Source: a virus
IMG/VR virus record: IMGVR_UViG_3300020595_000187
Location: 1-24,385 of that record
Reading direction: 5' to 3' (one strand)
Length of the DNA stretch: 24,385 bases
Below, piece after piece: positions 1 to 24,385 of the stretch; within the stretch, counting starts at the first letter, position 1, and each line of letters opens with the position of its first letter. Made by a program: the position numbers and the translations under genes. The notes below the pieces were generated by a model. The model saw only the letters and a list, made by a program, of their open reading frames with translations, was not told where the DNA came from and ran no database searches.

Positions 1-576
1 AACTATGAATACGTCAGGGTTTTCCCTGTACTTATCCACAGCTTTCTTACCCATCAGTAGTTTACCTGTTATAACATCCATGATAGGGCAAGGTGTGGAT
101 GCTAATATCATTGCCTTGAATACATTAGGATCGTCACAGATAATACTTATCCCTGAAATCTGTAAACCTAAACCACCTAGTTGTTGTGGTGTACCTAAGA
201 GCCTACTGTTTTTTCTTCTGTTGCAGTACTCGTCTTGTTTCATTGTACCTTGTGAATAACCAAACAAACTAAGCTGTAGACCTGATGTTGTAGGTAACAA
301 ACAACTATCATTACCTCCACCACCCATAACTGTAGGTGCTATACTTGACATAACTGGTGCTGCTTCACCTGCACCTGTAGCATTGTAGTTGTTAGTCGTA
401 CTGTCAGTGTTGTTGTTACTACTTACAGTTGAGTCCTCGTAGTTGTTACTGAAGTCACCTAACTCTACATTGTCAGCTAGTGCAATCGTCACCAAGGACA
501 GCTTTAAAATCAGGATCTTGGCAGAGAAGCTTAGTAGCTGCCTCAGGGTTACCAAGAAGGGAGAGTGTTCGAGCAT
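1..576 (-). CDS. Secreted Cys-containing protein, C-terminus cut by window edge
   Basis: A reading frame starts at ATG 576-574 and stays open for 192 codons to position 1, so the gene is 3'-truncated by the window. I checked every triplet in the frame and found no stop; a TAA lies directly before the ATG. The weak ribosome site AGAGAA precedes it. Residues about 19-34 are hydrophobic and end in ALA before DNVELGD, which looks like a signal peptide with an unusually long basic lead. The mature part has an Asn/Ser/Thr-rich segment, then Cys residues in NDSCL, DEYC, IICDDP and TPCPI. Alternating conserved-looking segments (SSIAPTVMGGGG, LFGYSQGTMKQDEYCNRR) resemble, from memory, a conserved hypothetical protein found near lysis genes of marine phages; I cannot confirm this. 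It overlaps the lipoprotein gene by 104 bp in another frame. The function is unknown; a periplasmic or virion-exported role is an inference. Confidence 0.8.
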   Translation of the reverse strand, partial: MLEHSPFLVTLRQLLSFSAKILILKLSLVTIALADNVELGDFSNNYEDSTVSSNNNTDSTTNNYNATGAGEAAPVMSSIAPTVMGGGGNDSCLLPTTSGLQLSLFGYSQGTMKQDEYCNRRKNSRLLGTPQQLGGLGLQISGISIICDDPNVFKAMILASTPCPIMDVITGKLLMGKKAVDKYRENPDVFIV

Positions 577-694
577 TTAAGTTTCTCTGACATTTGGGTT
601 CATTGTTAGGACAAACAGATGGGTACTCTATGATTGTAGATGAACAACCAGTTAGGATAACTGAGAGTAAGATACATTTAATTATCTTTAGCAT
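473..694 (-). CDS. Small lipoprotein, o-spanin (Rz1-like) candidate
   Basis: This 73-aa protein begins with a short basic N-terminus, a hydrophobic stretch (residues 8-14) and the lipobox ILTGC, which puts the lipidated cysteine at residue 17. That predicts export and anchoring, probably in the outer membrane. The start lies inside the last codons of the preceding membrane protein (17-bp overlap), the usual layout of overlapping spanin gene pairs, in which an inner-membrane Rz and an outer-membrane lipoprotein Rz1 fuse the two membranes at the end of lysis. Against this, the mature part is not proline-rich as many Rz1 proteins are, and it has four further Cys residues (28, 35, 58, 71), which is unusual. 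The spanin role therefore rests on context plus the lipobox. Its 3' part also carries the start of the left-edge gene in another frame. Confidence 0.72.
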   Translation of the reverse strand: MLKIIKCILLSVILTGCSSTIIEYPSVCPNNEPKCQRNLNARTLSLLGNPEAATKLLCQDPDFKAVLGDDCTS

Positions 695-950
695 TCATAG
701 CTTCCATCATTATACGAATAGACTTAATGTTCTCATCTATACGAGCTAGAGTTAGAGCCTGGGATTGTACTACAGTCTCTAGTCTTTCAATACGTACCTC
801 TTGCCTGAGTATTTCCTTAGTGTTATTCTTTACGTTGTTATCTAAGGATGACACATACCAGACAAGGGCTATGGTTTGACACACTATAGCTACAACTAAT
901 GTAATAGGTACTGACTTAGAGAGATGCCATTCTGTGTCTTTGTTTATCAT
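678..950 (-). CDS. Membrane-anchored coiled-coil protein, i-spanin (Rz-like) candidate
   Basis: This 90-aa protein has a short polar N-terminus, one membrane segment at about residues 15-36 (PITLVVAIVCQTIALVWYV) and a C-terminal heptad-like helix rich in Glu, Arg and Leu from about residue 40 to 85. A single N-terminal anchor with a periplasmic coiled coil is the expected shape of an inner-membrane spanin subunit. It overlaps the holin candidate by ATGA (ATG 950-948, TGA 949-947) and overlaps the downstream lipoprotein gene by 17 bp. A small class of phage holins also has one membrane segment, so a holin or antiholin role cannot be excluded. No enzymatic motif is seen. Confidence 0.7.
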   Translation of the reverse strand: MINKDTEWHLSKSVPITLVVAIVCQTIALVWYVSSLDNNVKNNTKEILRQEVRIERLETVVQSQALTLARIDENIKSIRIMMEAMNAKDN

Positions 951-1390
951 TTAGTAAATCCTGCTCCGAAGTATAGGCCAACTATAGCTGACACAATGTG
1001 AGTATCTAAAGGTGTTATGACAAAGCCAGATGCAGCTTGCCATCTTACAGTCTCGTTAGCACCAAGTAGCCAGTTAAGTATACCACCCTCTACCTCAGTG
1101 TAACCTACAATTACATTTACTTCAGGATAGAATACAGCAACTAACTTAGGTAATACTATGATAGCAAACACAGCAGACAGGGCTATGAGCCTACGTGTCC
1201 AAGCAAAGTGTTTGTCATTCTTACCAGCATTACGAGCCTCATCTACAGCACCCCTGTTGAACTCAGCTCTTTGTAATAGCATCTCGTTCTGTGCTTGTTT
1301 AGCTTTAATGCTTTGTCCCCATATGGACATGACCCCACCGAGAACGGTAGAGCCTAGCATTGTGATTAGTTCTAATGGTAATCCAAACAT
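947..1390 (-). CDS. Multi-pass membrane protein, holin candidate
   Basis: This 147-aa protein has three hydrophobic segments at about residues 3-24, 66-88 and 118-145, separated by a charged loop rich in Gln, Lys and Arg (about 26-65). It lies directly after the lysozyme gene and before the spanin-like pair, where podoviruses often keep the holin that permeabilises the inner membrane and times lysis. The start ATG at 1390 is preceded by GGAG about 10 bases upstream. Its length is at the long end for a holin and the sequence does not match a named holin class that I can recognise. The membrane topology is seen; the holin function is inferred from context. Confidence 0.55.
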   Translation of the reverse strand: MFGLPLELITMLGSTVLGGVMSIWGQSIKAKQAQNEMLLQRAEFNRGAVDEARNAGKNDKHFAWTRRLIALSAVFAIIVLPKLVAVFYPEVNVIVGYTEVEGGILNWLLGANETVRWQAASGFVITPLDTHIVSAIVGLYFGAGFTK

Positions 1391-1394
1391 TTAT

Positions 1395-2714
1395 TTATAT
1401 CTCCACCCTTCTGTTGAGCCAAAGCCTGAAATCTCTGAAAGAAGTTTTCGTAGCATAATCTTTACCTGTATCTATTTCAAAAGTACTTCCGTCTAATAAT
1501 TCGTATTCAAACCCTGCGTTTCCATTCGCCAATTGTTTAGGAGTGTATGCTAAAATAGTGGGTTGGGACTTAGACTCTGCTACCATATTATAATCTATAG
1601 CTCGTCTTGCACCTAAGCCTCTTAAAACAATGCCATTTTGAGTGAATACTTGTAACATACCAGTTTGAATAATTCCCATATCAGGATTATTTTTTGCCAT
1701 TTCTTCATAAGCAGGTTCCATATCATTGTATTCGTGACCATTCCCTGTGTTCCAAGCAAAAGATATTACACCCTCAAACGCACCAGTTGGAATGTCTGTC
1801 AATGAAACATTTTCGTCTATTATTGCTTTTTTAACTTTATCTTCAAAAGCAGTAAGAGTTGCTTTGGTAAATTCCTCATCTGTCCTGTAGTCACTTCTCC
1901 TTACTCCATCTTTTTCTACGTTATCTAATATAACATTAGCTGGATCAAAGTTATCTCTAGTAACACCAGCAGCTTGTAAGGTAGGCCACCTTCTAGCTTC
2001 ACTTTCTGGTAAGTCTATAATATTACCATTATGTCTGTACTGTAAGCCCCTTGTTGGGACAATACCATAAGCCAAAGTAATGCCTACATCAGTATAGTCT
2101 GCATCACCTAAGTGTGCTACGTCATCTTCTATATCAGGTAACTCACTAAACAAGTCATTCACTACTTGTGAAGGTGTAAATCTCTTTGCATTAAAGTCTT
2201 GTATCTTTGAATATGTATTAGCATCTAAGGTTCCTGTAACTGGTAATCCTTCTGCTTCTTGGAATGATCTTAGAGCAGCTTGAGTACCTGCACCTAGAAC
2301 ACCATCAATACCTCTGGGTACATAACCTAGCTCAGTTAAACCAGCTTGAGCAGACTTAATAGCTTCTTGGGTATCTGTAAAACTAGCATACCCTGTACCT
2401 ATTGTATTAATAACCAAAGGACTTGAGTACCTATTTGGAGATTGTCTTCTTCCTACAACCCCTACTTCACTACCTTTCACATCTGCAGTAGATGTAGTTT
2501 CTTGAACGACAGGTGGAAACTTTGCAGCCCTCTCCTCTTTTGTCAAAGACCTAGTAGCAGTGGACATTTTCTTAGCTTCCATTGCACTTTCTTTAGCCAT
2601 CTCTTCTGTAGGTACACCAGTATCCTCAAAAATGTCACTCAAAGCCTCAAAGTCTATAGGTTCTTGAGTATCCTCAAAGACATCACTGAATTCTTCAAAG
2701 TTAAAATCAGCCAT
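1395..2714 (-). CDS. Peptidoglycan-binding lysozyme (endolysin or virion muralytic enzyme)
   Basis: This 439-aa protein has an acidic N-terminus carrying a 16-residue tandem duplication (residues 6-37), a low-complexity linker, a PG_binding_1-like domain at about 112-172 (GIDGVLGAGTQAALRSFQ), and a GH24-like lysozyme domain at about 185-380. The lysozyme call rests on YTDVGITLAYG (207-217), GVISFAWNTGNG (315-326) and RGLGARRAIDYN (365-376), which match the family core. The glutamate normally found about nine residues before the Asp of YTD is absent: that region reads VAHLGDADYTD. Either a nearby acidic residue substitutes or the fold has diverged. ATG 2714 follows the upstream stop by one base and has only a weak purine-rich ribosome site. 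An in-frame ATG at 2822 with a strong AAGGAG would add 36 residues containing a membrane segment. Adjacency to membrane/lysis genes favours endolysin; adjacency to ejection proteins also allows a virion enzyme. Confidence 0.85.
   Translation of the reverse strand: MADFNFEEFSDVFEDTQEPIDFEALSDIFEDTGVPTEEMAKESAMEAKKMSTATRSLTKEERAAKFPPVVQETTSTADVKGSEVGVVGRRQSPNRYSSPLVINTIGTGYASFTDTQEAIKSAQAGLTELGYVPRGIDGVLGAGTQAALRSFQEAEGLPVTGTLDANTYSKIQDFNAKRFTPSQVVNDLFSELPDIEDDVAHLGDADYTDVGITLAYGIVPTRGLQYRHNGNIIDLPESEARRWPTLQAAGVTRDNFDPANVILDNVEKDGVRRSDYRTDEEFTKATLTAFEDKVKKAIIDENVSLTDIPTGAFEGVISFAWNTGNGHEYNDMEPAYEEMAKNNPDMGIIQTGMLQVFTQNGIVLRGLGARRAIDYNMVAESKSQPTILAYTPKQLANGNAGFEYELLDGSTFEIDTGKDYATKTSFRDFRLWLNRRVEI
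2604..2699 (-). repeat. 48-bp tandem duplication within the lysozyme gene
   Basis: Two in-frame 48-bp units encode FEEFSDVFEDTQEPID and FEALSDIFEDTGVPTE. The DNA word tatcctcaaa recurs exactly 48 bases apart, at 2621 and 2669. Both units are acidic with regularly spaced Phe, giving two short amphipathic motifs at the extreme N-terminus. Confidence 0.85.
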
Positions 2715-2715
2715 G

Positions 2716-4992
2716 TTACTTGTTTCTCTCTTTTCGTTTGGTTCTGATCTCACCATTAAGACCAATAAACAAGCCACCAATAGGAATCCTATCAAATTCA
2801 GCAGCTGTCCTTGGGGTGTCATAAGGGTTCTCCTTAGTACCTACCTCTGTGTCTTGTGAGCCTAAACCTGTTACCCCTATCTCTGGAGCATTTACTTCCA
2901 TGTTAGCATCTCTTTGAGAAATTGCATCTACAGCTCTGGTTACATCACCTTGTCCTGCAGACTCTCCTATTGTATTGACAACTGCTGAGTCATTAGATGT
3001 AGTTGGTATTTCTATATATGGGTCATTCCTTGCACCTACTGGTTGCTCTCCTCTCATAGCTAATGCTATAGCTTCTCTTTCAGCAACGTAAGCTTCAGGT
3101 TCTATTTGTGCTGCAAGCCTTGACAAATATACAGATGATGAACGCATGTCTAATAACCGCCTGAAGTCAGCTTCTTTAGGTAGAAGATTTAAGAATCTAT
3201 TACGAGCTTGTGTTATGTCACTACCAGCTTTTTTTGATATCATCATACTCTTGCCAGTTATTACCCCTGCTACGTCAACTGAGGTAATAGACTTAAACTT
3301 ATCAGTATATGCTTTACTTACATCACCACCATAGTACTTATCTACAACAAAACGTAACCCTAGTATATCAGGGTCTGTAGTATTAGCATCTATATTGTAT
3401 ACACGTTTAGTTTCATCAAAGACAAAACTCATAGTACTAGCATCTGATCTAATACGTTGGTCATACTGTGCTTTCTGTGCACCTAAAGATCTATACAGCA
3501 TGACTTCAAGAGCCTCACCCTTTACAGGGTCAACAGATTTGAGTGACTTAATCATTTTTGGTAAACCAGCACTTACTTCTTCTCTGACACCCTTAAATGA
3601 AATAGGTTCTTCTAGTATATTTATCTGTTCTAAACTTAAAGCTAATCCTGCAACATTCTGGAAGAAACCATTCCTGAAACTTTCATCTCCTTCTAAAATT
3701 GTTTTAGAACTAAACCCTTTACTTACTGCACCATATGCTTTAGTACCTACCCATCCCTGAGCATTTGTCATACTGTTCCACTTAGCTTGTTCGTCAGGAT
3801 TGAGTAGAGATATTGCACTTACTCTGTTTTTCTCTATATCAGCAGCTCCACCTGGTTTCTGATACTCAATTAGGTTTGCAAAGGTTGACATAAGACCATT
3901 GGTTGTGACAATGTCTGTACTAGGTATATCTGAAGCTTCTACTGGTAAATTTTCAAGATCAGGAAATCTGGCATCTAACAGATTAGCCGTGACTTGATCT
4001 AATTGAAATTTTTCACTACTAATTTGTGCTGCAAGCATTATGTCAGACAATTTATTACTCTTACTAAGAATACTGAGAGCAAACTTAATTTTTCTTTGTT
4101 GTTCAAGAGTATCTTTTGTTAAGATTGATATTTTACCTTCAGATGTAGAGATACCCAGTTGCTTAAAGGTTTCTTCAATGTTATTCATTTCTTTGTCAAA
4201 CTGTGCTCTATCTGCTGTATCAATAGAGGAAGGTATCTTAGCATTTAATTCTGATTTAAGTGCTAAGAAACCAAGGAATCTTGTTTGTAACATTTCACCT
4301 GTAATGGGAACACCTGCTTGATCTAATGCATTATATGCATTAAGTGTGTCATCAAGAAAAGTTTTTTGCATCTGTTTATATATAGGTTGAGCATTTTGCC
4401 ATTCACTTGCATCTGTTATTTTTGTATTATCAAATGCAATTTTCATTACTTCACGAGAGTTTATTTGAGCAGCTAACTCTTCTGTTGTAGGTTGTTCAAT
4501 ACCCTGTTTTATTAGACTAAGCCTTGCAAAGTTTAATTCCCCTTGTCCTTCTGGGGTTAGACTCAAGTTATTAACTAAAATCTCTGCTTCAGTACGTGCA
4601 AACATCTCAATAGGTTGACCTGTAATAGTTTCCTTTAATGCACTATACTCTGCATCATTAACATCAATTCCTCTACCACCAAATCTTAGATCAAGCATAG
4701 TAATTTTTCTGTTGTAATCATTTTCATTAAGATTACCTTGCTCCAACTGCTGCTGAAAAAAGTTTAACTCATCAGAGTACTCAGCCTTTTGTTCTCTTTC
4801 GAATATGTCTTTACGTTCAGTGTACGAGGGAGCTGAAGCAGCAGCTTCTCTTTCTGCTTTGTCCCTAGCTCTAGCCGATTCTTTAGCACCTGTAGCTAGA
4901 AAGTTAAAAACACTAGCTGTTGCATTAGCTTCTTGTACAGCTTGCTCAGGTCTAACCTGTGATGTTAGTTGTGGTGAAAATATACCAGCCAT
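2716..4992 (-). CDS. Internal virion/ejection protein, 758 aa (T7 gp15-size)
   Basis: This long, largely helical, charged protein has no signal peptide or convincing membrane segment. The N-terminus (MAGIFSPQLTSQVRPEQ) leads into an Ala/Glu/Lys-rich helix at about residues 20-75. The C-terminus ends with a basic tail (KRKERNK). Its length is close to T7 gp15 (747 aa), an inner-core protein ejected into the host periplasm to form the DNA conduit, and it sits in the ejection-protein block before lysis. I see no sequence motif that proves homology to gp15, so the assignment rests on size, composition and position. AGGA about eight bases upstream of ATG 4992 supports the start; the preceding gene stops at 4996. 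In T7 the gp15 gene precedes the larger gp16 gene, whereas here the larger protein comes first. Confidence 0.7.
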   Translation of the reverse strand: MAGIFSPQLTSQVRPEQAVQEANATASVFNFLATGAKESARARDKAEREAAASAPSYTERKDIFEREQKAEYSDELNFFQQQLEQGNLNENDYNRKITMLDLRFGGRGIDVNDAEYSALKETITGQPIEMFARTEAEILVNNLSLTPEGQGELNFARLSLIKQGIEQPTTEELAAQINSREVMKIAFDNTKITDASEWQNAQPIYKQMQKTFLDDTLNAYNALDQAGVPITGEMLQTRFLGFLALKSELNAKIPSSIDTADRAQFDKEMNNIEETFKQLGISTSEGKISILTKDTLEQQRKIKFALSILSKSNKLSDIMLAAQISSEKFQLDQVTANLLDARFPDLENLPVEASDIPSTDIVTTNGLMSTFANLIEYQKPGGAADIEKNRVSAISLLNPDEQAKWNSMTNAQGWVGTKAYGAVSKGFSSKTILEGDESFRNGFFQNVAGLALSLEQINILEEPISFKGVREEVSAGLPKMIKSLKSVDPVKGEALEVMLYRSLGAQKAQYDQRIRSDASTMSFVFDETKRVYNIDANTTDPDILGLRFVVDKYYGGDVSKAYTDKFKSITSVDVAGVITGKSMMISKKAGSDITQARNRFLNLLPKEADFRRLLDMRSSSVYLSRLAAQIEPEAYVAEREAIALAMRGEQPVGARNDPYIEIPTTSNDSAVVNTIGESAGQGDVTRAVDAISQRDANMEVNAPEIGVTGLGSQDTEVGTKENPYDTPRTAAEFDRIPIGGLFIGLNGEIRTKRKERNK
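2830..2835 (-). promoter_or_regulatory. Strong Shine-Dalgarno before alternative lysozyme start
   Basis: AAGGAG stands seven bases before an in-frame ATG at 2822-2820. Using it would give a 475-aa lysozyme beginning MTPQGQ, with a hydrophobic run of about 18 residues (LLNLIGFLLVACLLVLMV). The site lies within the 3' end of the preceding gene (codons for Lys-Glu), so it could be coincidental. It is the best ribosome site near this gene. Confidence 0.45.
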
Positions 4993-4995
4993 GTT

Positions 4996-7900
4996 TTAGT
5001 CCTTTTGTAAAAGTTGAGATGCCCATCGTGCTGCAGTCCCCTTGTCATTTTCGTATAGTGTTCTTAGGATGAAAGAGTAGTCGTCAACTGTAGGTGTAAG
5101 TAGTCTAAGAAGATCTGTCTTCCTGTTGTAAGATAGTGGTGATTTAGAAACAAGAGTTCTAGTATCTCTTAAGATTTGAGAGGCACGTTCAGGGTCTTTA
5201 CCGTAGATGCTCCAAGCTAGTTTAGACTTGGACAAGACTTCCTTTTTAAGAGCCTTGTTGTTCTTACCTAAGTCAAAGGTTCTTCCCATCTGGTTGTAGT
5301 ACTCAGTTACTTGCAGTGGTGTAAAACCTAGTATAGATATAAGAGCATCTGACAAACCAACTTCGACAGGAACCCTTAAACCCTTACGGTTTCTGTATGT
5401 GTCATCTGCTATAATACCGACAGCTTTAGCAACTGAGTTTATACCTGAGAAGTTTCTGAGTATTCTTAGTGAGTCTTCTGTAAGTGTAGATGTCTGACCG
5501 TTGACTAGGTTATTGACAAGGTTAAACAGTGCTTCCCCACCAGTATATACGATACTACCTGATGGACCACCTATAGCTGTAAGAACATTTTCTTCTGTAA
5601 ACTTATCAATGATGTCATAAAATGCAGGGATAGGAGCCATACGTTCTGACAGGGCTACATCAAAAGGAGTGAAGTGATTAAGAAAACCATCCATCACACC
5701 ATACTTCATAGTTATAAACAACGCCTTGTCTGTGTCATCATTAGGGTCAAGGTCAAATGTTTCTGCAACTTTTTCTGCAAGAAACCCTCCACCTAAACCT
5801 GTGAAACCAAAGAACGGCATTGTAATAAAACCTAGTTTAGCTCTTTCAGCTTTAGTTAGATCACGACCAACAAATACTTGTTCTGTTGTACGAAAGAAAT
5901 ATGACAACCACTGTGTAGGTACTTTACCCACACCACTCTGTAAAGCTGAACGAGATGTGTTACTCATGTTCTGTGTGAGAGTTTCAGTTCTTGTCACTAT
6001 ATAGTTTATAGCTTCTTCTGACAAAAAAGATACGTCAGGATTAGCCTTTTTAAACTCTAGTGCTGCACCCATAAAACCATTAGACTTAGCTGTTGATTCA
6101 CCAAAGTTAAATGGTTTTAAACCTACGTTGAAAATAGCTTTACCTACCTTAGATGCTTTGAAACCAACTCTGCCAAATGTATTTCTTGAAGACTTACCTG
6201 TCAGAGCACCCGTACTTGCTGCTAATTCGATACTGTCGCCCATAACTTCATTTGGTAATACTTGACGAAATAACTCTGCAAGATCTACAGTATCTTCTTC
6301 ACTTAGTTTAATAGCCTTAGCTAAACCCTTTAAACCTAAACTTTCTGTGGCTATGTCATCTGTTCCACTCATAACTACACGTAAGATACTAGAACCTGTT
6401 AGTGCTCTTGAGGCCACATCTAATCCTAGTATAGCTGCAGCATTTAGAATCTGAGATGACTGTAAATAAGCTTGTGACAAGTTAAATGAGAATGCAGAAA
6501 AGAAACCTGTCTTTAGTAGTAGTGCTTCAGACCCTTCTAGATTAACTTTCAAACCCCAAGCATCATAAACTTGTTCAGTTACTTCATCAGCAATAACTTT
6601 CATTTGATCCTGTAAGTTACTTGTCATACCTAATCTATTTTTAACAATCTGCTGTAATTCACGCATACGACCAGCTTCAGGACTTGAGCCAACTACTTTA
6701 GCTGTCAGGAATAGTTTCTTAAAGTTAGAACCTTGACCTACCTCAACGCCAATATTAACGCCTTCTTTTTTCATCAAACGAACTTGTTCAATCCACCCTT
6801 GCATAGCACGATGTGTGTAAACAGAACTAGCATACTGGTGGGCAGCTGATCCATACTGATCTACAATAGAAGACAATGGGCTTGGGTTATAAGCTGAAGA
6901 TCCACCGTATTCTGTAAGTGGTGTGTCACTACGAGCCATCTGGTTGTGGACATATTCTTCTACAGATTCACCATTGAAGACTTTATCAAAAGGATCTTCA
7001 ATAGTATCATCTCTTAGTTTACTGCCTATGTTACCTTCTGTAATATCTATTTTGTTAGCTGTTAACCACTTATCCATATCAGCTTTAGTATTTATACTAG
7101 GACTCCAGCTGTTGTTTGCTTGGATAACTTCAGTAATGCTTTCGTCTGTAATCTTGTCAGTCTTGTAAGCAGCCTGGATAGCTTGTAATTCTTTTGTTGC
7201 TAACTGTGCTGTTTGATCACTGAATGCTGTAAGGATAGTCTTGACACCCTTACCACCTGTTAAGAACAAGAAGTATTTAGCCAAAGGATTAGTACGTCTA
7301 CCATAAGCTGAGTAACCCAAGACATCACTAGGTTCTATAACTCTTACTGTAGAGGGTAGTATAACATAATCCTGACCACTCCAAGGAGAGTTAAGTTCCC
7401 ATACTACAGTGTCTTGAGGTATATCGTCTACCTCTTTAGCATACAGTTTGACACCATTCATATTGTCAAGAACCTTAGCATCATCAGGTAACTTACTAAG
7501 TGTAGTTCTTCTAGCAGGTAAGAAGATACCCTCTGCTACTTGCACTGAGTTCTTGAAACCTTTAGATATATAAGACTTTAGTATTTCTTGAGAAGTAAAA
7601 AAGTATGCAGCATCTGACAAATCTTGAGAAGCTTTAAAAGCATCCAACACTTCTTGAGAAGGTTGTTCGTTTGTTTTACCTACCCAGTGAGCTTTAAAGT
7701 TTGTTTCACTCCACTCCTTACGTAGTACACTCTCAGGTCCATCTCTTAGTGTTGCCAGTACACCATTCAACATATTTGTGTCATCATAGTTTAACTTAGC
7801 TATTATTTCTTTCTTCTTATTTCCTGTCTTGCTAAGATATTTATCAGCAGCAGCTGAACGAAGAGCAAGTGTATTTAGTTCTGAAACATCCCTTGTAGCT

Positions 7901-9318
7901 GCTGAAGCAACATACTTATTGTCATACAGTTTGCCGATGGTTTTAGTCCAAGCATTTTGAACTAGCTTTGTATCCAAACGTCCCTTTAAACCAGATGACA
8001 AATCAGCAGCTTCAGATACTTTTACCACATAGCCTAAAGATAGGTTGTCAGGGTCTAAAGGTATTACTTCACCGTCAGTTTTCTCTGCAATTTTTCTAGC
8101 ACCACTAGGTGCCTCACCACTCTTTAAGGGTTTGAATGCTGTTCCATCTGTACCCTTACCTATAAGAAAATCAATAGATGACGTTTGAGTATCTATAGGA
8201 TTAAACCTAGTGTCATATAAATTATACTTAAAGGTTCTTGTAAACTTTTCTACAGCAGCTACCTTTAAGGCTTCTTGGTCTACAATACGAGCAGCTGTAG
8301 GTACAGCACCTGTAGCCTCACCCTTTATAACAGTTGCAACAATATCATTTGTGTCTTTAATCTTTTGTGCCCAACCAGCAGATGGCCTTACACCACCCCC
8401 ATTAAGATCTACAGCACTAGACTGTAGGTTAGCTGTGTTAAGAGGATCAATATCTTTAGAGTGTAAGTTGTCAGCTACTTTGTTAGCTTCTTCTACACCA
8501 CCTAAATTACCAGCACGAGTAGCTACTGTTGTAGATTTAAGAGATGCTACTTTAGAAATACCTCTAGCTATACTAGCAGTCTTACCTACTACACCTACAA
8601 AACCTAATAGATCTAGTGTACCAAATATTCTATCCCAAGATGCGTCTGGGTTGTAGCCTTTGCCGTATACTTCTCTAACCATCTGAGCATAAGCAAATGC
8701 ATTGTCCTTACCCAAACCTTCTTTACGTATATCATCTACATATTCTTTAGCAAACCTACGCATCTCTTTAGGGTCAGCTGTGTCAAACAGAGTAGAGAGT
8801 AAACGATCTCCCTCACGAGCTGTACGATTGGTAAGGTTTTCATACCAACCAAATGCTGTAGCCCTTAGTATCTCTCTATCAATTAGGTCAATACCATAAC
8901 CAATGTAACTCTTACCCTCTTGTTCGACAGCAGCTTGTTCCATTTCTTCTGTAAGTATCTGTAAGTTTTTGTAGTAACGAGTTTGAGTAGCTGTGTATCC
9001 TTCACTACGACTAAGTACATCATCTTCTATGTACAGGTCATCTTTATTGTAGATACCAAATAGTTTATTTTCACCATCTGAAATAACCTCTGCAAGTTCT
9101 ATAGTGTCTTCTTTGTTGTCAATAGCCCTTGTCACTTTTCTTTTAAATGACATAGATGCTTGACTGTTTATTCGTTCTGATGCTTCTTCAGGTGTCTCAT
9201 TACCTTTAAGTATTGCCTCATTATCTACATTAGGTGGACGTACAAACTCTGGTCCATAGACATCTTGAGAGTCTATAAATCCACCAGTCTTGTTTTCAGA
9301 AGTATCAATAAATTCCAC
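4996..9318 (-). CDS. Very large internal virion/ejection protein, 1440 aa (T7 gp16-size)
   Basis: This is the largest complete gene in the window. Size and neighbours match the biggest inner-core ejection protein of T7-like phages (gp16, 1318 aa), which helps translocate DNA across the cell envelope. The sequence is mixed helical, with hydrophobic or amphipathic stretches at about residues 235-260, 925-975 (FFSAFSFNLSQAYLQSSQ) and near 1170 (TMPFFGFTGLGGGFL) that could insert into membrane after ejection. T7 gp16 has an N-terminal lytic transglycosylase; I do not see a clear catalytic motif of that kind here, and the phage carries a separate lysozyme. The start is GTG 9318-9316, supported by GGAG seven bases upstream; no better start is apparent. 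Homology to gp16 is inferred from context, not from a recognised motif. Confidence 0.75.
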   Translation of the reverse strand: MEFIDTSENKTGGFIDSQDVYGPEFVRPPNVDNEAILKGNETPEEASERINSQASMSFKRKVTRAIDNKEDTIELAEVISDGENKLFGIYNKDDLYIEDDVLSRSEGYTATQTRYYKNLQILTEEMEQAAVEQEGKSYIGYGIDLIDREILRATAFGWYENLTNRTAREGDRLLSTLFDTADPKEMRRFAKEYVDDIRKEGLGKDNAFAYAQMVREVYGKGYNPDASWDRIFGTLDLLGFVGVVGKTASIARGISKVASLKSTTVATRAGNLGGVEEANKVADNLHSKDIDPLNTANLQSSAVDLNGGGVRPSAGWAQKIKDTNDIVATVIKGEATGAVPTAARIVDQEALKVAAVEKFTRTFKYNLYDTRFNPIDTQTSSIDFLIGKGTDGTAFKPLKSGEAPSGARKIAEKTDGEVIPLDPDNLSLGYVVKVSEAADLSSGLKGRLDTKLVQNAWTKTIGKLYDNKYVASAATRDVSELNTLALRSAAADKYLSKTGNKKKEIIAKLNYDDTNMLNGVLATLRDGPESVLRKEWSETNFKAHWVGKTNEQPSQEVLDAFKASQDLSDAAYFFTSQEILKSYISKGFKNSVQVAEGIFLPARRTTLSKLPDDAKVLDNMNGVKLYAKEVDDIPQDTVVWELNSPWSGQDYVILPSTVRVIEPSDVLGYSAYGRRTNPLAKYFLFLTGGKGVKTILTAFSDQTAQLATKELQAIQAAYKTDKITDESITEVIQANNSWSPSINTKADMDKWLTANKIDITEGNIGSKLRDDTIEDPFDKVFNGESVEEYVHNQMARSDTPLTEYGGSSAYNPSPLSSIVDQYGSAAHQYASSVYTHRAMQGWIEQVRLMKKEGVNIGVEVGQGSNFKKLFLTAKVVGSSPEAGRMRELQQIVKNRLGMTSNLQDQMKVIADEVTEQVYDAWGLKVNLEGSEALLLKTGFFSAFSFNLSQAYLQSSQILNAAAILGLDVASRALTGSSILRVVMSGTDDIATESLGLKGLAKAIKLSEEDTVDLAELFRQVLPNEVMGDSIELAASTGALTGKSSRNTFGRVGFKASKVGKAIFNVGLKPFNFGESTAKSNGFMGAALEFKKANPDVSFLSEEAINYIVTRTETLTQNMSNTSRSALQSGVGKVPTQWLSYFFRTTEQVFVGRDLTKAERAKLGFITMPFFGFTGLGGGFLAEKVAETFDLDPNDDTDKALFITMKYGVMDGFLNHFTPFDVALSERMAPIPAFYDIIDKFTEENVLTAIGGPSGSIVYTGGEALFNLVNNLVNGQTSTLTEDSLRILRNFSGINSVAKAVGIIADDTYRNRKGLRVPVEVGLSDALISILGFTPLQVTEYYNQMGRTFDLGKNNKALKKEVLSKSKLAWSIYGKDPERASQILRDTRTLVSKSPLSYNRKTDLLRLLTPTVDDYSFILRTLYENDKGTAARWASQLLQKD

Positions 9319-20733: not shown

Positions 20734-20927
20734 TCTGGCAACTCCTCTTCTTCTTCTTCTACATACTGATCTGGGAATTGTGCTTCATGTGCTGTTAGCA
20801 TTTCAGCTTCACTTGCAAACTCTTGCACTGTTGCATCATCTCGGTAGGATACGACAGTCCCATCCAATAGTGAGACTGCCGCAGTGTTAATGATGAAGTG
20901 ACCTTCAGTTTTTGTAATGATACTCAT
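20730..20927 (-). CDS. Small unknown tail-cluster protein, 65 aa
   Basis: I place the start at ATG 20927 (MSIITKTEGHFIINTAAVSL), because it forms a TAATG overlap with the stop of the large tail protein and has AGG upstream; an in-frame codon at 20957 would add ten residues inside that gene. The middle (VVSYRDDATVQEFASEAEML) is a mixed strand/helix region, and the C-terminus is strongly acidic (VEEEEEELPE). The family is not recognised. Coupling to both neighbours suggests it is made with the tail protein, perhaps as an assembly factor. Confidence 0.65.
   Translation of the reverse strand: MSIITKTEGHFIINTAAVSLLDGTVVSYRDDATVQEFASEAEMLTAHEAQFPDQYVEEEEEELPE
20742..20747 (-). promoter_or_regulatory. 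Ribosome site deciding the GTG start at 20733
   Basis: GAGGAG lies eight bases before GTG 20733-20731. The same bases encode part of the Glu run at the end of the upstream protein, so its acidic C-terminus doubles as the ribosome site. Confidence 0.6.
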
Positions 20928-23900
20928 TATGCTGTACCTCCATCTGTGATAGTCCATCCATCGTTACTAATCAGGTTAGCTCTAGCCGTGGCCGCCGCAG
21001 ACCCTGCTGTGTATGTACTACTTCCAAAGCTAGGTGTCATACCATCAAATGGTTCTTGTGCATCCCAATTAACTAAGAGTGCATCATAACGTGAGGTTGG
21101 TATAGAGAAACCTGTTATAAAGTTATTTAAGTTACCAGCTAAATTAAGACCTTCAATGTTAAAGTTTTCGACACCCACAATATCAGTAAGGTTATTACAG
21201 TCTTTGAACATTTTATGCATAGTTGTAACTGAAGATGTATCGAAGTTACTTACGTCTAAAGATGTTAGGCTACTGCACCTTTGGAACATACTACTCATAC
21301 CTGTAACTGAAGATGTATCAAAGTTACTCAAGTTTAAAGATGTTAGGCTAAGACATGTATAAAACATACCACTTGTATTTGTAACTGAAGATGTATCGAA
21401 GTTACTCACATCAATAGATGTTAGACCATAACAGAATATAAACATATTATTCATAGCTGTAACTGAAGATGTATCAAAGTTACTCACATCAATAGAAGTA
21501 AGGTTAGTACAAGAATAAAACATGCTACTTATATCTGTAACTGAAGATGTATCAAAGTTACTCACATCAAGAGAAGTAAGGTTAATACAATTACGGAACA
21601 TATTATTCATAGCTGTAACTGAAGATGTATCGAAGTTACTTACGTCAAGAGATGTTAAGCTATTACAATCACGGAACATATTAGCCATAACTGTAACTGA
21701 AGATGTATCTGTTGTCCCTGCTGTAAACGAAGTCATATTAGTACATCCGTAAAATGCAGAAGATAATGATAACCAACCGACAGTACCTAAGTTCTCAACA
21801 GATTTAACTTTAAGTCTGTCACCTCCAGAACTAAATCTAATATGAGGGAAGCTACCTCTGATCCGTATCAAATGATCTCCAGCAGTTGCATATGTATGCG
21901 TTAGATTAGCATCGTTGTATGCTGAGATAGATGAGACTGAACCATCACCCCACTCAATGCCAGCATCAAATGTACCTACGTTTCCGGTTGGGATCGTAAA
22001 GGTTTCGTTGGCTGTCGTCGTTGTGACAGTCATTGCAAACTCATCTGTAAACGTTGGTGCTGATGCTGTAACTATGCCAGTATCCGTTAGATCATCTGAC
22101 CACACTCTGAACTTACCTATTGTACCCATGAAGTCATAGCCTAACTGTAGGTCTGTTGCTGACAAGTCAGGAAGAGCTATAGGTGTTGTGTTAGCTATGA
22201 GTGCTGTACCATCGACTGCACCATTGATAAAGGTAGAACCATGTCGTGATGCTACGTTAAATGGTACGTTGATGTTGGGGGAGTATGACCCTGTTCCAGT
22301 TTCAGAAACAGCATCGTAAACACCAGCATTTTCTTGTGTAAAAAAGGGCCGTCCTGTGTCTGTTGAATTTGTACTTAAATCAAAAACCGAAAGAGTATTA
22401 CTAGAATCTTGTCTCCACCTAGCCCCTACAACATTGCTGTAAATTCCCTCATCAGCATATGTCATCCTGCCATCCATCTGTATTGACACAGAGAGAGGGT
22501 TGATTTCTTTGATTGAGATGTTGTCGAACTCTCCCGTAGAACCCGACCCAGTATGCAGGAAAACTCTTATAATCCCAGTAGAAGAGGTAACAGTCTGGGA
22601 AAATGACCCAGTAGAAGAATTACCTGTCCCATTATTATACAGGGGTGTAGAAAAAGAAGCCCCGTCGTAGATACCAATTCGCAGGTTTGTTCCAGAAACT
22701 TGCTCCCACCCAACAGCATAAACTTGCCCAGCAGTGACATTTACATCTTGAGTTACGCCTATGTTCCCAGATGTAGAGGTTGCTAGCATGGTGTTAGATG
22801 CGTAACTAATCGTCCCTGTCGTGAGATATTCTGTATAACCTGTAGAGCCACTATCAAACGTGCCATTCGTCACCAACTCAGTGCCTGTAGTCTCAACAGG
22901 TGTAGGCCAAGGTAGATTAGCTGATGGTACTGTTAGTGTCTCAGCCGCCCTTGTTACAGTTGATCCTGATGTTGGGATGTAGCTTGATGGGGTTGAGCCT
23001 TGTTCAAACTGAGTGCCATAGAGGTAAATGCCAGAAGTTCCGTCATTAGGGCTGTCTGGTAATCTACTAGAAACATCAGTGTCGTACACAGCAACAAAGA
23101 ATGGATTACCAGTAGTGCTTTGAGAGGCTACAGCAGTTAAAGTTATTCTATACCAACCATTACCTACTGGTGTTACTATAACACCTATGTTGCTATTACC
23201 AAGACTACCATTAGAAAGATTGACGTTAGCAAATGTAGCCGCAAACCTTGGAGAAGAACCTCCTATTTGAAGCCAACTATACTCGCCAGCCTTGGCATAA
23301 ATTGAACCTGTGTAAGTTGTTCCACTAGTAATTGAAATACTAGGAAAAGTAACTCCTGCCCAACCACCAGACTGCGGTATTATAAGAGTTGCATCTGTAG
23401 CACCTGACGGGCTGGTAGTGTTGTTTGCTGATATAACTGCTCTAGTCTTAAGCCACTCAGCATTAGCAAAATCATTCGAATAAGTAACCAAATTAGTCCT
23501 AGCTTCACTCTCATGGAGTACGCCTTCGTTTGCCCAAGCATCACCATTGTAAATGTGGTGGCCTACTCTTGGTAGGTAAACAGCAGAACTTGTTGTTGGA
23601 ACGTAGGTTTCTAAGCCAGTTGGTTGTGCTGGGTTGTCTACCATACCGCCTAAGTTACTGCGGAATAAGTGTGATCCCCATGCGTATATGCCTTGGCCTA
23701 CAACTCCAACAAAAGAACTTAATGCTCCATTACCAATTCCAAGTCTAATACTATTATCAATGTCCGTAGAGCCATCGTTAGTTACTGAGCAATAATACCA
23801 ACCATTGCCTACATCTACCATGTTTGCAGTATTACCAGTTCCAGATGCTGTTGCTACACCAGTAGATAAATTAAATGAACCACCAACATTACCACCTCGA

Positions 23901-24385
23901 CTGAGGAAAATACTTGCAGATGCTACCTCTCCTGCTTTAAAAAAGGCTGATACTGTATGAGACTCAGCACCCATAGTTACACCTTTTGATATAAAATGAA
24001 AACTATTATTGGTTGTAGCAAATGATAACTTATCTGCTGTAGTTGTACCATCAGGTGCTGTGGTTGCATTAGATGTGACTGAACAATCTGTTTTACCCCA
24101 ATCCGAATTAGAGAAGTCCTCAGAGTAAGGCAGTAGGTTATGCGGACGCCACTTAATGTTACCATCACTGCCTGTCATGGTTGCATTGCTAGAGGCACTG
24201 TGAGTTACAGCAGGGTTAAGGTTTGACTTGACACCTGCAGCTCTGTAGTACTCATTGATAAAATCTAAAGAGTAAGCTGGTTGTTTTGTCAGGACACCAT
24301 AATCTAAAGCTACAAACGAAGCTGAACTATTACGTAAGTCTCTCATAGCCTCATAGAAACTACCGTACTCTGACACCAAAAACTT
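20927..24385 (-). CDS. Giant modular tail adhesin with BspA/DUF285 LRR domain, 5' end cut by window
   Basis: The frame is open to the right edge, so the TTG at 24379 need not be the start; at least 1150 residues are present (numbered from 24379). Two related carbohydrate-binding-like units open with NLLPYSEDFSNSDW (about residue 81) and NLVTYSNDFANAEW (about 295), each followed by a GNGWY motif. A third, galactose-binding-like unit begins near 503 (LVTNGTFDSGSTGYTEY). A LamG-like region (about 635-770), a PKD-like region with WGDGSV (about 785-850), seven LRR-like repeats (891-1072) and a C-terminal cap ending DGWTITDGG follow. The repeats match the BspA/DUF285 type known from bacterial surface proteins. 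The gene's place beside the tail fibre supports a receptor- or glycan-binding role on the virion; the precise receptor is unknown. Confidence 0.85.
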   Translation of the reverse strand, partial: KFLVSEYGSFYEAMRDLRNSSASFVALDYGVLTKQPAYSLDFINEYYRAAGVKSNLNPAVTHSASSNATMTGSDGNIKWRPHNLLPYSEDFSNSDWGKTDCSVTSNATTAPDGTTTADKLSFATTNNSFHFISKGVTMGAESHTVSAFFKAGEVASASIFLSRGGNVGGSFNLSTGVATASGTGNTANMVDVGNGWYYCSVTNDGSTDIDNSIRLGIGNGALSSFVGVVGQGIYAWGSHLFRSNLGGMVDNPAQPTGLETYVPTTSSAVYLPRVGHHIYNGDAWANEGVLHESEARTNLVTYSNDFANAEWLKTRAVISANNTTSPSGATDATLIIPQSGGWAGVTFPSISITSGTTYTGSIYAKAGEYSWLQIGGSSPRFAATFANVNLSNGSLGNSNIGVIVTPVGNGWYRITLTAVASQSTTGNPFFVAVYDTDVSSRLPDSPNDGTSGIYLYGTQFEQGSTPSSYIPTSGSTVTRAAETLTVPSANLPWPTPVETTGTELVTNGTFDSGSTGYTEYLTTGTISYASNTMLATSTSGNIGVTQDVNVTAGQVYAVGWEQVSGTNLRIGIYDGASFSTPLYNNGTGNSSTGSFSQTVTSSTGIIRVFLHTGSGSTGEFDNISIKEINPLSVSIQMDGRMTYADEGIYSNVVGARWRQDSSNTLSVFDLSTNSTDTGRPFFTQENAGVYDAVSETGTGSYSPNINVPFNVASRHGSTFINGAVDGTALIANTTPIALPDLSATDLQLGYDFMGTIGKFRVWSDDLTDTGIVTASAPTFTDEFAMTVTTTTANETFTIPTGNVGTFDAGIEWGDGSVSSISAYNDANLTHTYATAGDHLIRIRGSFPHIRFSSGGDRLKVKSVENLGTVGWLSLSSAFYGCTNMTSFTAGTTDTSSVTVMANMFRDCNSLTSLDVSNFDTSSVTAMNNMFRNCINLTSLDVSNFDTSSVTDISSMFYSCTNLTSIDVSNFDTSSVTAMNNMFIFCYGLTSIDVSNFDTSSVTNTSGMFYTCLSLTSLNLSNFDTSSVTGMSSMFQRCSSLTSLDVSNFDTSSVTTMHKMFKDCNNLTDIVGVENFNIEGLNLAGNLNNFITGFSIPTSRYDALLVNWDAQEPFDGMTPSFGSSTYTAGSAAATARANLISNDGWTITDGGTA
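21164..21709 (-). repeat. Seven tandem 78-bp LRR-coding repeats
   Basis: The word gtaactgaagatgtatc, or its one-base-shorter core, recurs at 21225, 21303, 21381, 21459, 21537, 21615 and 21693: exactly 78 bases apart, seven times. Each unit encodes 26 residues of the form DTSSVTxMxxMFxxCxxLTS followed by LDVSNF. The DTSSVT and LDVSNF parts are nearly invariant even in DNA, while the residues flanking MF and C vary, as expected for a conserved solenoid core with a variable surface. Confidence 0.93.

What the first reader, a model, noticed from the sequence alone, without database searches (positions are those of the whole stretch)
2714..2822. Two competing starts for the lysozyme, one adding a membrane segment
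ATG 2822 has a strong AAGGAG at seven bases and would add a hydrophobic helix of about 18 residues, as in membrane-tethered or SAR endolysins. ATG 2714 fits gene spacing but has a weak site. If both are used, the phage would make anchored and soluble forms from one gene, and 107 bp would be coding in two frames.
Basis: partly seen in the sequence, partly recalled or inferred. Interest (0 to 1): 0.5.

Follow-up and report, generated by a model that had tools for sequence, protein, structure and literature searches.

The report
Hidden membrane anchor on phage lysozyme
In this marine phage, and in a group of its relatives, the end of one virion gene appears to double, in another reading frame, as a membrane-anchoring start for the next gene's cell-wall-cutting enzyme, so that one gene could give an anchored and a free form.

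Summary
In detail: ATG 2822 has AAGGAG seven bases upstream, is in frame with ATG 2714, and adds 36 codons with an 18-residue hydrophobic stretch; 107 bases are shared with the preceding gene. It is more than a by-product: with the upstream protein kept and its codons redrawn, none of 10,000 draws is as hydrophobic. The test is calibrated (21 of 2,009 pseudo-junctions at P<=0.01). Six further groups picked by homology, including cobaviruses ICBM1, ICBM2, P12053L, CRP-4 and CRP-5, give a combined P of 4e-7. All 25 readable marine junctions with the upstream motif are open in the hydrolase frame, although catalytic domains differ; nine bacterial-genome loci with the motif lack it. The inner start is also kept, one base after the upstream stop in 17 of the 25, and opens a duplicated short tag. 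Best reading: one gene makes a membrane-anchored long hydrolase and a soluble short one, the anchor overprinted on the end of an internal virion protein gene. The published inference that cobavirus endolysins lack membrane anchors probably reflects start-codon choice. There is no protein-level evidence; SAR release and virion packaging are untested.

The parts
2716..4992 (-). upstream gene, 758 aa, directly after an internal-virion-protein-D-like gene (4996-9318); ends in the C-terminal motif KENPYDTP..EFDRIPIGGLFIGLNGEIRTKRKERNK
   Evidence: neighbour matches ICBM2 'internal virion protein D'; motif shared by different upstream proteins
2830..2835 (-). AAGGAG, Shine-Dalgarno-like site of the upstream start, 7 bases before ATG
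2715..2822 (-). 36-codon N-terminal extension, in frame with the hydrolase; 2716-2822 overlaps the upstream gene in another frame
   Evidence: codon-redraw tests
2751..2804 (-). hydrophobic segment LLNLIGFLLVACLLVLMV, putative membrane anchor
   Evidence: helix 3-24 in a low-confidence model
2712..2714 (-). inner start ATG, one base after the upstream stop TAA (2716-2718)
   Evidence: same 1-base spacing in 17 of 25 marine motif junctions
2613..2714 (-). N-terminal duplicated acidic-aromatic tag of the short form (DFNFEEFSDVFEDT / DFEALSDIFEDTG), seen by eye
   Evidence: analogous duplicated tags follow the inner Met in relatives and in prophage-like loci
2457..2845 (-). block shared with L005 (and its first part with L009), whose flanks differ; its upstream edge lies 10 bases before the AAGGAG
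2205..2369 (-). PG_binding_1 domain
   Evidence: E 3.3e-14
1599..1877 (-). Phage_lysozyme-like region, below the family cutoff
   Evidence: E 0.0044, 17.8 bits against 22.3
947..1390 (-). holin-like membrane protein (phrog_38283, unknown function), conserved next to these hydrolases
   Evidence: the name holin is inference
678..950 (-). i-spanin-like membrane protein
   Evidence: weak PHROG spanin matches
473..694 (-). small lipoprotein-like protein (LTGCSS), possible o-spanin
   Evidence: weak match phrog_812

Best explanation
The gene 2822-1395 is a peptidoglycan hydrolase gene with two working starts. From ATG 2822, inside the end of the preceding internal-virion-protein gene and in another frame, it makes a long form with an N-terminal membrane-spanning anchor, the membrane-tethered enzyme of host lysis. 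From ATG 2714, one base after the upstream stop and therefore reachable by ribosomes that finish the upstream gene, it makes a short soluble form that begins with a duplicated tag, most likely a virion-bound enzyme. The anchor is overprinted on the conserved C-terminal motif of the upstream protein and has been kept by selection while the catalytic domain was swapped. Shown by computation: the open, hydrophobic extension, its recurrence beyond codon usage, and conservation of both starts. Inferred: that both are translated, that the long form acts in lysis, and that the short form is packaged.
For: Codon-redraw test, upstream protein fixed: none of 10,000 draws for the window; six groups picked by homology, not by hydrophobicity (L018, CRP-5, CRP-4, ICBM2, ICBM1, P12053L) P 0.004-0.045, Fisher 4.4e-7; 2.4e-6 without CRP-4, 1.5e-6 with the codon usage of the upstream gene alone. 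The test is calibrated: 70 of 2,009 pseudo-junctions at P<=0.05, 21 at <=0.01. 25 of 25 readable marine motif junctions have the next gene in this frame with an open extension; 27 of 27 junctions scored have mean hydropathy >=1.3, where the redraw null gives 2-56% each, 20 of them 3-20%. All 15 loci of another family fetched by homology show it, including L126 and L127, which my motif pattern had missed (P 0.0005 and 0.001). N-flanks from the upstream ATG are positive in most groups (MKKP, MRYR, MKK, MQR, MQKRIKR, MIHRKKRIRR), as for N-in, C-out anchors. SD-like sites precede the upstream ATG in several groups: aaggagaaacag (CRP-4), gaggaggaaacag (P12053L), aaaggggccacag (ICBM1). After 13 codon changes between L107 and L113 hydrophobicity was kept more than random changes at those codons would keep it (P 0.016; window to L009 0.015; window to L006 0.062). 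Catalytic domains at the site differ: Phage_lysozyme (L018, L043), GH19 (L004), Amidase_2 (ICBM2), SLT (CRP-5), Phage_lysozyme2 (L094). SIO1 gp24 is annotated from the upstream ATG.
Against: No protein, ribosome or mutant data. The upstream ATG and SD are also conserved codons of the upstream gene. With codon usage of the upstream gene alone single values weaken: P12053L 0.079, SIO1 0.116, CRP-4 0.041, ICBM1 0.029. ICBM2, L113, L089 and L094 lack an SD by my criterion. Of the 71 readable loci among 80 with the same holin-like neighbour, 8 have the motif and 51 have at most 15 open codons before the hydrolase start (a mechanical pick), so the anchor is not needed to work beside that protein. 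CRP-4 has a second junction (gp37/gp36), next to the holin-like gene, with no extension. In L034, L035 and L037 the hydrolase domain is fused to the end of the virion protein, which points to entry rather than lysis. In the window and in ICBM2 the N-flank from the upstream ATG carries no positive charge, so topology is unclear there.
Confidence: 0.62

Rival explanations
1. By-product: the hydrophobic frame is the shadow of the conserved C-terminal motif (P, G, S, A, I, F residues with T-ending codons) of the upstream protein. Only ATG 2714 is used and the hydrolase is soluble.
For: The motif is conserved in sequence while the extension is not; SD and ATG are its codons (K E N P Y D); T at wobble is raised in the last 30 codons (0.43-0.53 against 0.33-0.41); annotators chose the inner start in ICBM1, ICBM2, P12053L, CRP-4 and CRP-5.
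Against: The redraw null holds the motif residues and codon usage fixed and is calibrated. Nine motif loci from bacterial genomes are not hydrophobic in that frame (P2 >= 0.53), and the one AT-rich locus among them (L152, GC 0.37) is closed there. Hydrophobicity is retained after wobble changes.
Confidence: 0.2
2. Only the long form is made: ATG 2822 is the true start and ATG 2714 an ordinary internal methionine.
For: ATG 2822 has by far the better SD; the block shared with L005 and L009 begins 10 bases before that SD; SIO1 is annotated from the upstream ATG.
Against: An ATG sits 1-19 bases after the upstream stop in all 25 readable marine motif junctions, exactly 1 base in 17. Tags of the same style follow the start codon in five prophage-like loci that have no hydrophobic extension. 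Some inner starts have their own GAGG-type site (L107 group).
Confidence: 0.12
3. The long form is not a lysis enzyme but a membrane-held form for entry or assembly, for example placed in the inner membrane by the ejected internal virion proteins.
For: The hydrolase is fused to the internal virion protein in L034, L035 and L037; the named PHROG matches of CRP-5 gp37 are to tail or internal virion proteins and a peptidase.
Against: The gene stands beside holin-like and spanin-like genes; other relatives match PHROG endolysins; a hydrophobic N-terminus is usual for exported endolysins (recalled) and odd for a packaged enzyme.
Confidence: 0.06

Closest known systems
SAR endolysins (P1 Lyz, phage 21, N4; recalled; N4 preprint PMC12642591: passages seen)
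   Same: cell-wall enzyme with an uncleaved hydrophobic N-terminus, holin-like and spanin-like neighbours
   Different: here the anchor is coded in another frame inside the preceding virion gene, a second in-frame start gives an anchor-less form, and the segment is L/I/V-rich rather than G/A-rich
Cobavirus endolysins (ICBM1, ICBM2, P12053L, SIO1, CRP-4, CRP-5)
   Same: same place in the genome, related upstream motif, same open hydrophobic extension
   Different: described as free of membrane anchors (PMC6775973, passage read); the deposited ICBM1 and ICBM2 starts lie downstream of the overlap
Dual-start motif of lambda holin S107/S105 (recalled; mentioned in PMC12642591)
   Same: two starts in one frame give two forms with different behaviour at the membrane
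   Different: there two residues differ; here a whole membrane segment of 36 codons
Rz/Rz1 embedded and overlapping spanin genes (PMC6139136, search listing only; otherwise recalled)
   Same: lysis gene signal sequence coded out of frame inside another gene
   Different: there both genes are spanins; here the host gene is a virion protein and the overprinted part is only the anchor
Endolysins with an internal start of Gram-positive phages (recalled)
   Same: one endolysin gene, two products
   Different: there the internal start yields a binding domain alone; here both forms keep the enzyme

Membership tests
SAR endolysin | N-terminal hydrophobic segment able to act as signal anchor | tested here: met
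   mean hydropathy 2.92 over 18 residues, none of 10,000 redraws as high; by sequence only
SAR endolysin | weakly hydrophobic, G/A-rich segment that leaves the membrane | tested here: inconclusive
   only one G and one A in LLNLIGFLLVACLLVLMV; release cannot be judged
SAR endolysin | muralytic catalytic domain | tested here: inconclusive
   window: PG_binding_1 solid, Phage_lysozyme below cutoff; relatives L018 and L043 Phage_lysozyme above cutoff
SAR endolysin | periplasmic activation on membrane depolarisation | not testable with these tools
   needs expression experiments
cobavirus endolysin locus | hydrolase gene directly after the gene that follows internal virion protein D | tested here: met
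virion-associated peptidoglycan hydrolase | present in the particle | not testable with these tools
   indirect: fused to the virion protein in L034, L035, L037
dual-start gene | two in-frame starts, each conserved in relatives | tested here: met
   use of both not shown

The most novel reading that the evidence does not exclude
One gene serves both ends of infection: the long form, anchored through a segment overprinted on the docking motif of its partner virion protein, lyses the host, and the short tag-bearing form is packed into the virion and cuts the wall at entry. Motif, anchor and tag form a portable joint onto which lysozyme, GH19, amidase or transglycosylase domains are swapped.
Probability: 0.33. 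Interest if true: 0.82.

Novelty: new variant of a known kind. Interest (0 to 1): 0.64.

Why it matters
Most deposited starts at this locus lie after the overlap, so an anchor of this sort is cut off and the lysis pathway may be misread: the cobavirus description infers a canonical holin pathway from endolysins without anchors (PMC6775973). If true, widespread marine phages export their lysis enzyme by a signal hidden in another gene, and one gene may supply both lysis and entry enzymes. It can be tested in cultured phages (ICBM1, ICBM2, P12053L, CRP-4, CRP-5) and gives a simple rule for re-annotation: look for an open hydrophobic frame upstream of hydrolase starts.

Tried and rejected
Whole-protein tblastn of the hydrolase and of a 41-residue motif against phage records: no match. 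Synonymous-rate comparison of the overlap with the rest of the upstream gene: overlap often lower (for example 0 of 24 against 79 of 169), but discarded because the upstream genes are mosaic and the motif travels with the hydrolase, so recombination explains it. phiEco32 as a motif control: E-value 4 match in a small ORF, taken as chance. AlphaFold of the long form: mean pLDDT 41, so no fold search was made. PDB sequence search matched only the stretch of the peptidoglycan-binding domain. L089, L094 and L068 were first noticed through low P and are therefore left out of the six-group combined test; a nine-group figure that includes them (1.4e-9) is not relied on. For CRP-4 I used the junction that carries the motif (gp38/gp37); its other junction (gp37/gp36) has no extension; without CRP-4 the combined P is 2.4e-6. 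Six loci of yet another family with long open extensions gave mixed results (P2 0.003 for L067 and L098; 0.10-0.19 for L085, L093, L100, L102).

In one search the regex gave 35 rows; I set aside 9 by eye as not the motif (L119, L026, L027 at 5996, L034, L036, L039, L049, L075, L003) and L009 because the contig ends, leaving 25. The scan dropped junctions with identical last 75 bases and upstream ORFs under 150 aa (so SIO1 is not in it), and its pattern missed L126 and L127, which one search then read. One search scored the 25 plus L006 and L113. Many of these are close relatives, so they stand for roughly ten groups.

No Pfam family at E<=0.01 was found for the downstream proteins of ICBM1, L013, L089, L068, L124, L126, L130 and CRP-4 gp37; PHROG endolysin matches support ICBM1, P12053L, CRP-4 gp37, L005, L089, L068 and L126; L013 has none in either, so its label rests on position and on the shared N-terminal block.
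Full report
What is there. On the minus strand the hydrolase ORF runs to 1395 from either of two in-frame ATGs, 2822 or 2714. ATG 2822 follows AAGGAG by seven bases; the 36 codons it adds contain LLNLIGFLLVACLLVLMV. ATG 2714 lies one base after the TAA of the upstream gene. The added codons lie inside the end of that gene in another frame (107 shared bases). The window is a virus record; its hydrolase has no tblastn match in the phage records searched. Its large upstream protein (4996-9318) matches internal virion protein D of cobaviruses, and its downstream genes are holin-like, spanin-like and lipoprotein-like.

Close relatives. Nine IMG/VR loci encode relatives; seven of these and L013 cover the junction. 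All eight keep ATG, AGGAG and an open hydrophobic extension. L001 is nearly identical throughout; others share a block across the junction of roughly 390-510 bases but differ beyond it: L004 carries a GH19 domain, L006 a lysozyme-like one below the cutoff, and in L013 the upstream gene is a different protein that ends in the same motif. The upstream edge of the block in L005 and L009 lies 10 bases before the AAGGAG.

Why a by-product had to be excluded. The upstream motif codons K E N P Y D spell the SD and the ATG, and each hydrolase-frame codon has the upstream wobble base in its middle, so T-ending codons give hydrophobic residues. I therefore kept the upstream protein and redrew its codons from the locus usage. 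In one search (5,000 draws each) an ATG-started extension as hydrophobic as the real one appeared in no draw for the window, L001, L004 and L013, in 0.02-0.44% for L005, L006 and L009, and in 0.2-2.5% for the ten sequences of groups B and C. With 10,000 draws the window again had none. On 2,009 pseudo-junctions inside other genes the same test gave P<=0.05 in 70 and P<=0.01 in 21, so it is not biased towards low values.

Distant relatives. Group B (L018, L109, L032, L120: M(R/I)YRLVLTIGLV..LLLGLKEV(V/I)TR before MVDFWE) and group C (L107, L108, L110, L111, L113, CRP-5: MKKPILWFL.VLI.VLVL.. or MKRHIAWSLLVLTTVSVLTLLF before MANFW(D/E)) have the same frame relation. So do the other cobavirus isolates examined: ICBM1 and SIO1 MKK..ISITVYLVVLILLIPQ, ICBM2 MISCLLLWMLVTTSLAL, P12053L MQRLTVFLSVLTLLTLLMADF, CRP-4 gp37 MTNSKRSSIVLSRVLCLSILLMAGC. 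For six groups chosen by homology the combined P is 4.4e-7 with the ATG required and 7.8e-6 without. With codon usage from the upstream gene alone it is 1.5e-6, though single values weaken (P12053L 0.079, SIO1 0.116, CRP-4 0.041, ICBM1 0.029). The arrangement also occurs in a family with another upstream protein (L089, L094, L068): all 15 loci that homology brought in show it, for example MQKRIKRIKIFLLVLILFILIPISL in L124 and MLNLKLVSILLILLMVGYFL in L126.

Controls. Of 336 non-redundant gene junctions in the loci then held, 34 had at least 20 open codons upstream in another frame; in the frame relation seen here 18 of 25 had P2<=0.05, in the other 1 of 9; 15 of those 18 are junctions with the motif, two (L067, L098) another hydrolase family, one (L060) not hydrophobic. 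Motif-bearing C-termini in the marine loci: 25 of 25 readable ones are followed by a gene in this frame with an open extension. A scan of the collection of 84,980 bacterial and archaeal genomes for the motif gave nine loci. In five of them the next gene starts with a duplicated short tag (for example MPRFSGTPVEQDNQAPKPRFSGLPV) in frame relation 0 or 2, without a hydrophobic extension; none of the five matches a Pfam family, and of three scanned against PHROGs one is a virion structural protein and two are of unknown function. In all nine the frame in question is not hydrophobic or, in AT-rich L152, closed. Only one of the nine is AT-rich, which limits this control. Retention: from L107 to L113, 13 codons changed in the overlap and the segment stayed hydrophobic, as only 1.6% of random changes at those codons would leave it; window to L009 1.5%, window to L006 6.2%.

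The inner start. It is one base after the upstream stop in 17 of 25 motif junctions (groups A, B, C, ICBM1, ICBM2, L094, L130, L131 among them) and 4-19 bases in the other 8. What follows it is often a duplicated short tag (DFNFEEFSDVFED/DFEALSDIFED; ANFWDNDEVV/ANFWDKDEVI; VDFWERDEVV/KNFWEGDEVV), like the tags after the start codon in the prophage-like loci; this likeness is by eye. Together with hydrolases fused to the virion protein in L034 (GH108), L035 (GH19, below cutoff) and L037 (PG_binding_1 with NlpC/P60 below cutoff), it suggests a virion partner for the short form. This step is inference.

Against the reading. No expression data exist. Some junctions lack a clear SD (ICBM2, L113, L089, L094). 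Of 71 readable loci beside the same holin-like gene, 8 have the motif and 51 have at most 15 open codons before the hydrolase start. CRP-4 gp36, which stands next to that gene, has no extension. In the window itself and in ICBM2 the N-terminal flank has no positive charge, unlike most relatives. The catalytic domain of the window protein is only weakly recognised.

Print. [quoted passage not shown] Deposited starts are inconsistent: SIO1 gp24 begins at the upstream ATG, ICBM3 at an intermediate one, ICBM1, ICBM2, P12053L, CRP-4 gp37 and CRP-5 at the inner one. The papers listed by searches (8 to 15 shown of up to 1,028 hits each) did not, by title and abstract start, describe an endolysin anchor coded out of frame in a virion gene; the library is open-access only and I read passages of three papers, so this is a weak negative.

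On re-reading I ran: they added the unread members, the combined tests without CRP-4 and with own-gene codon usage, and domain searches of the control proteins.

Noticed in passing
L034, L035, L037 (and probably L036, L039): The hydrolase domain (GH108; GH19-like; PG_binding_1 with NlpC/P60-like) is fused to the C-terminus of the internal virion protein, directly before the same holin-like gene.
   Followed up: partly
window 2457-2845 and L004, L005, L006, L013: Near-identical joint flanked by different upstream proteins and different catalytic domains: a swap point.
   Followed up: partly
L147-L155: Prophage-like loci in bacterial genomes: a protein ending EFDALPSGAxYIDPDDGKxYRKP is followed in five of nine by one starting with two or three copies of a short RFxGxPV-type tag; looks like a general pairing of neighbouring virion proteins.
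   Followed up: partly
L105 6550-6690 (CRP-4), L041: The extension before gp37 reads SILLMAGCSLNQ, close to a lipoprotein signal, so in this branch the overprinted part might give a lipoprotein.
   Followed up: no
L138/L160 (SIO1): In the SIO1 record gp25 ends early and the motif lies in a separate ORF in another frame; this may be why gp24 was annotated from the upstream start.
   Followed up: no
window 20927-24385: Long protein with repeated SLDVSNFDTSSVTAMNNMF units, probably a receptor-binding or tail-fibre protein; runs off the window.
   Followed up: no
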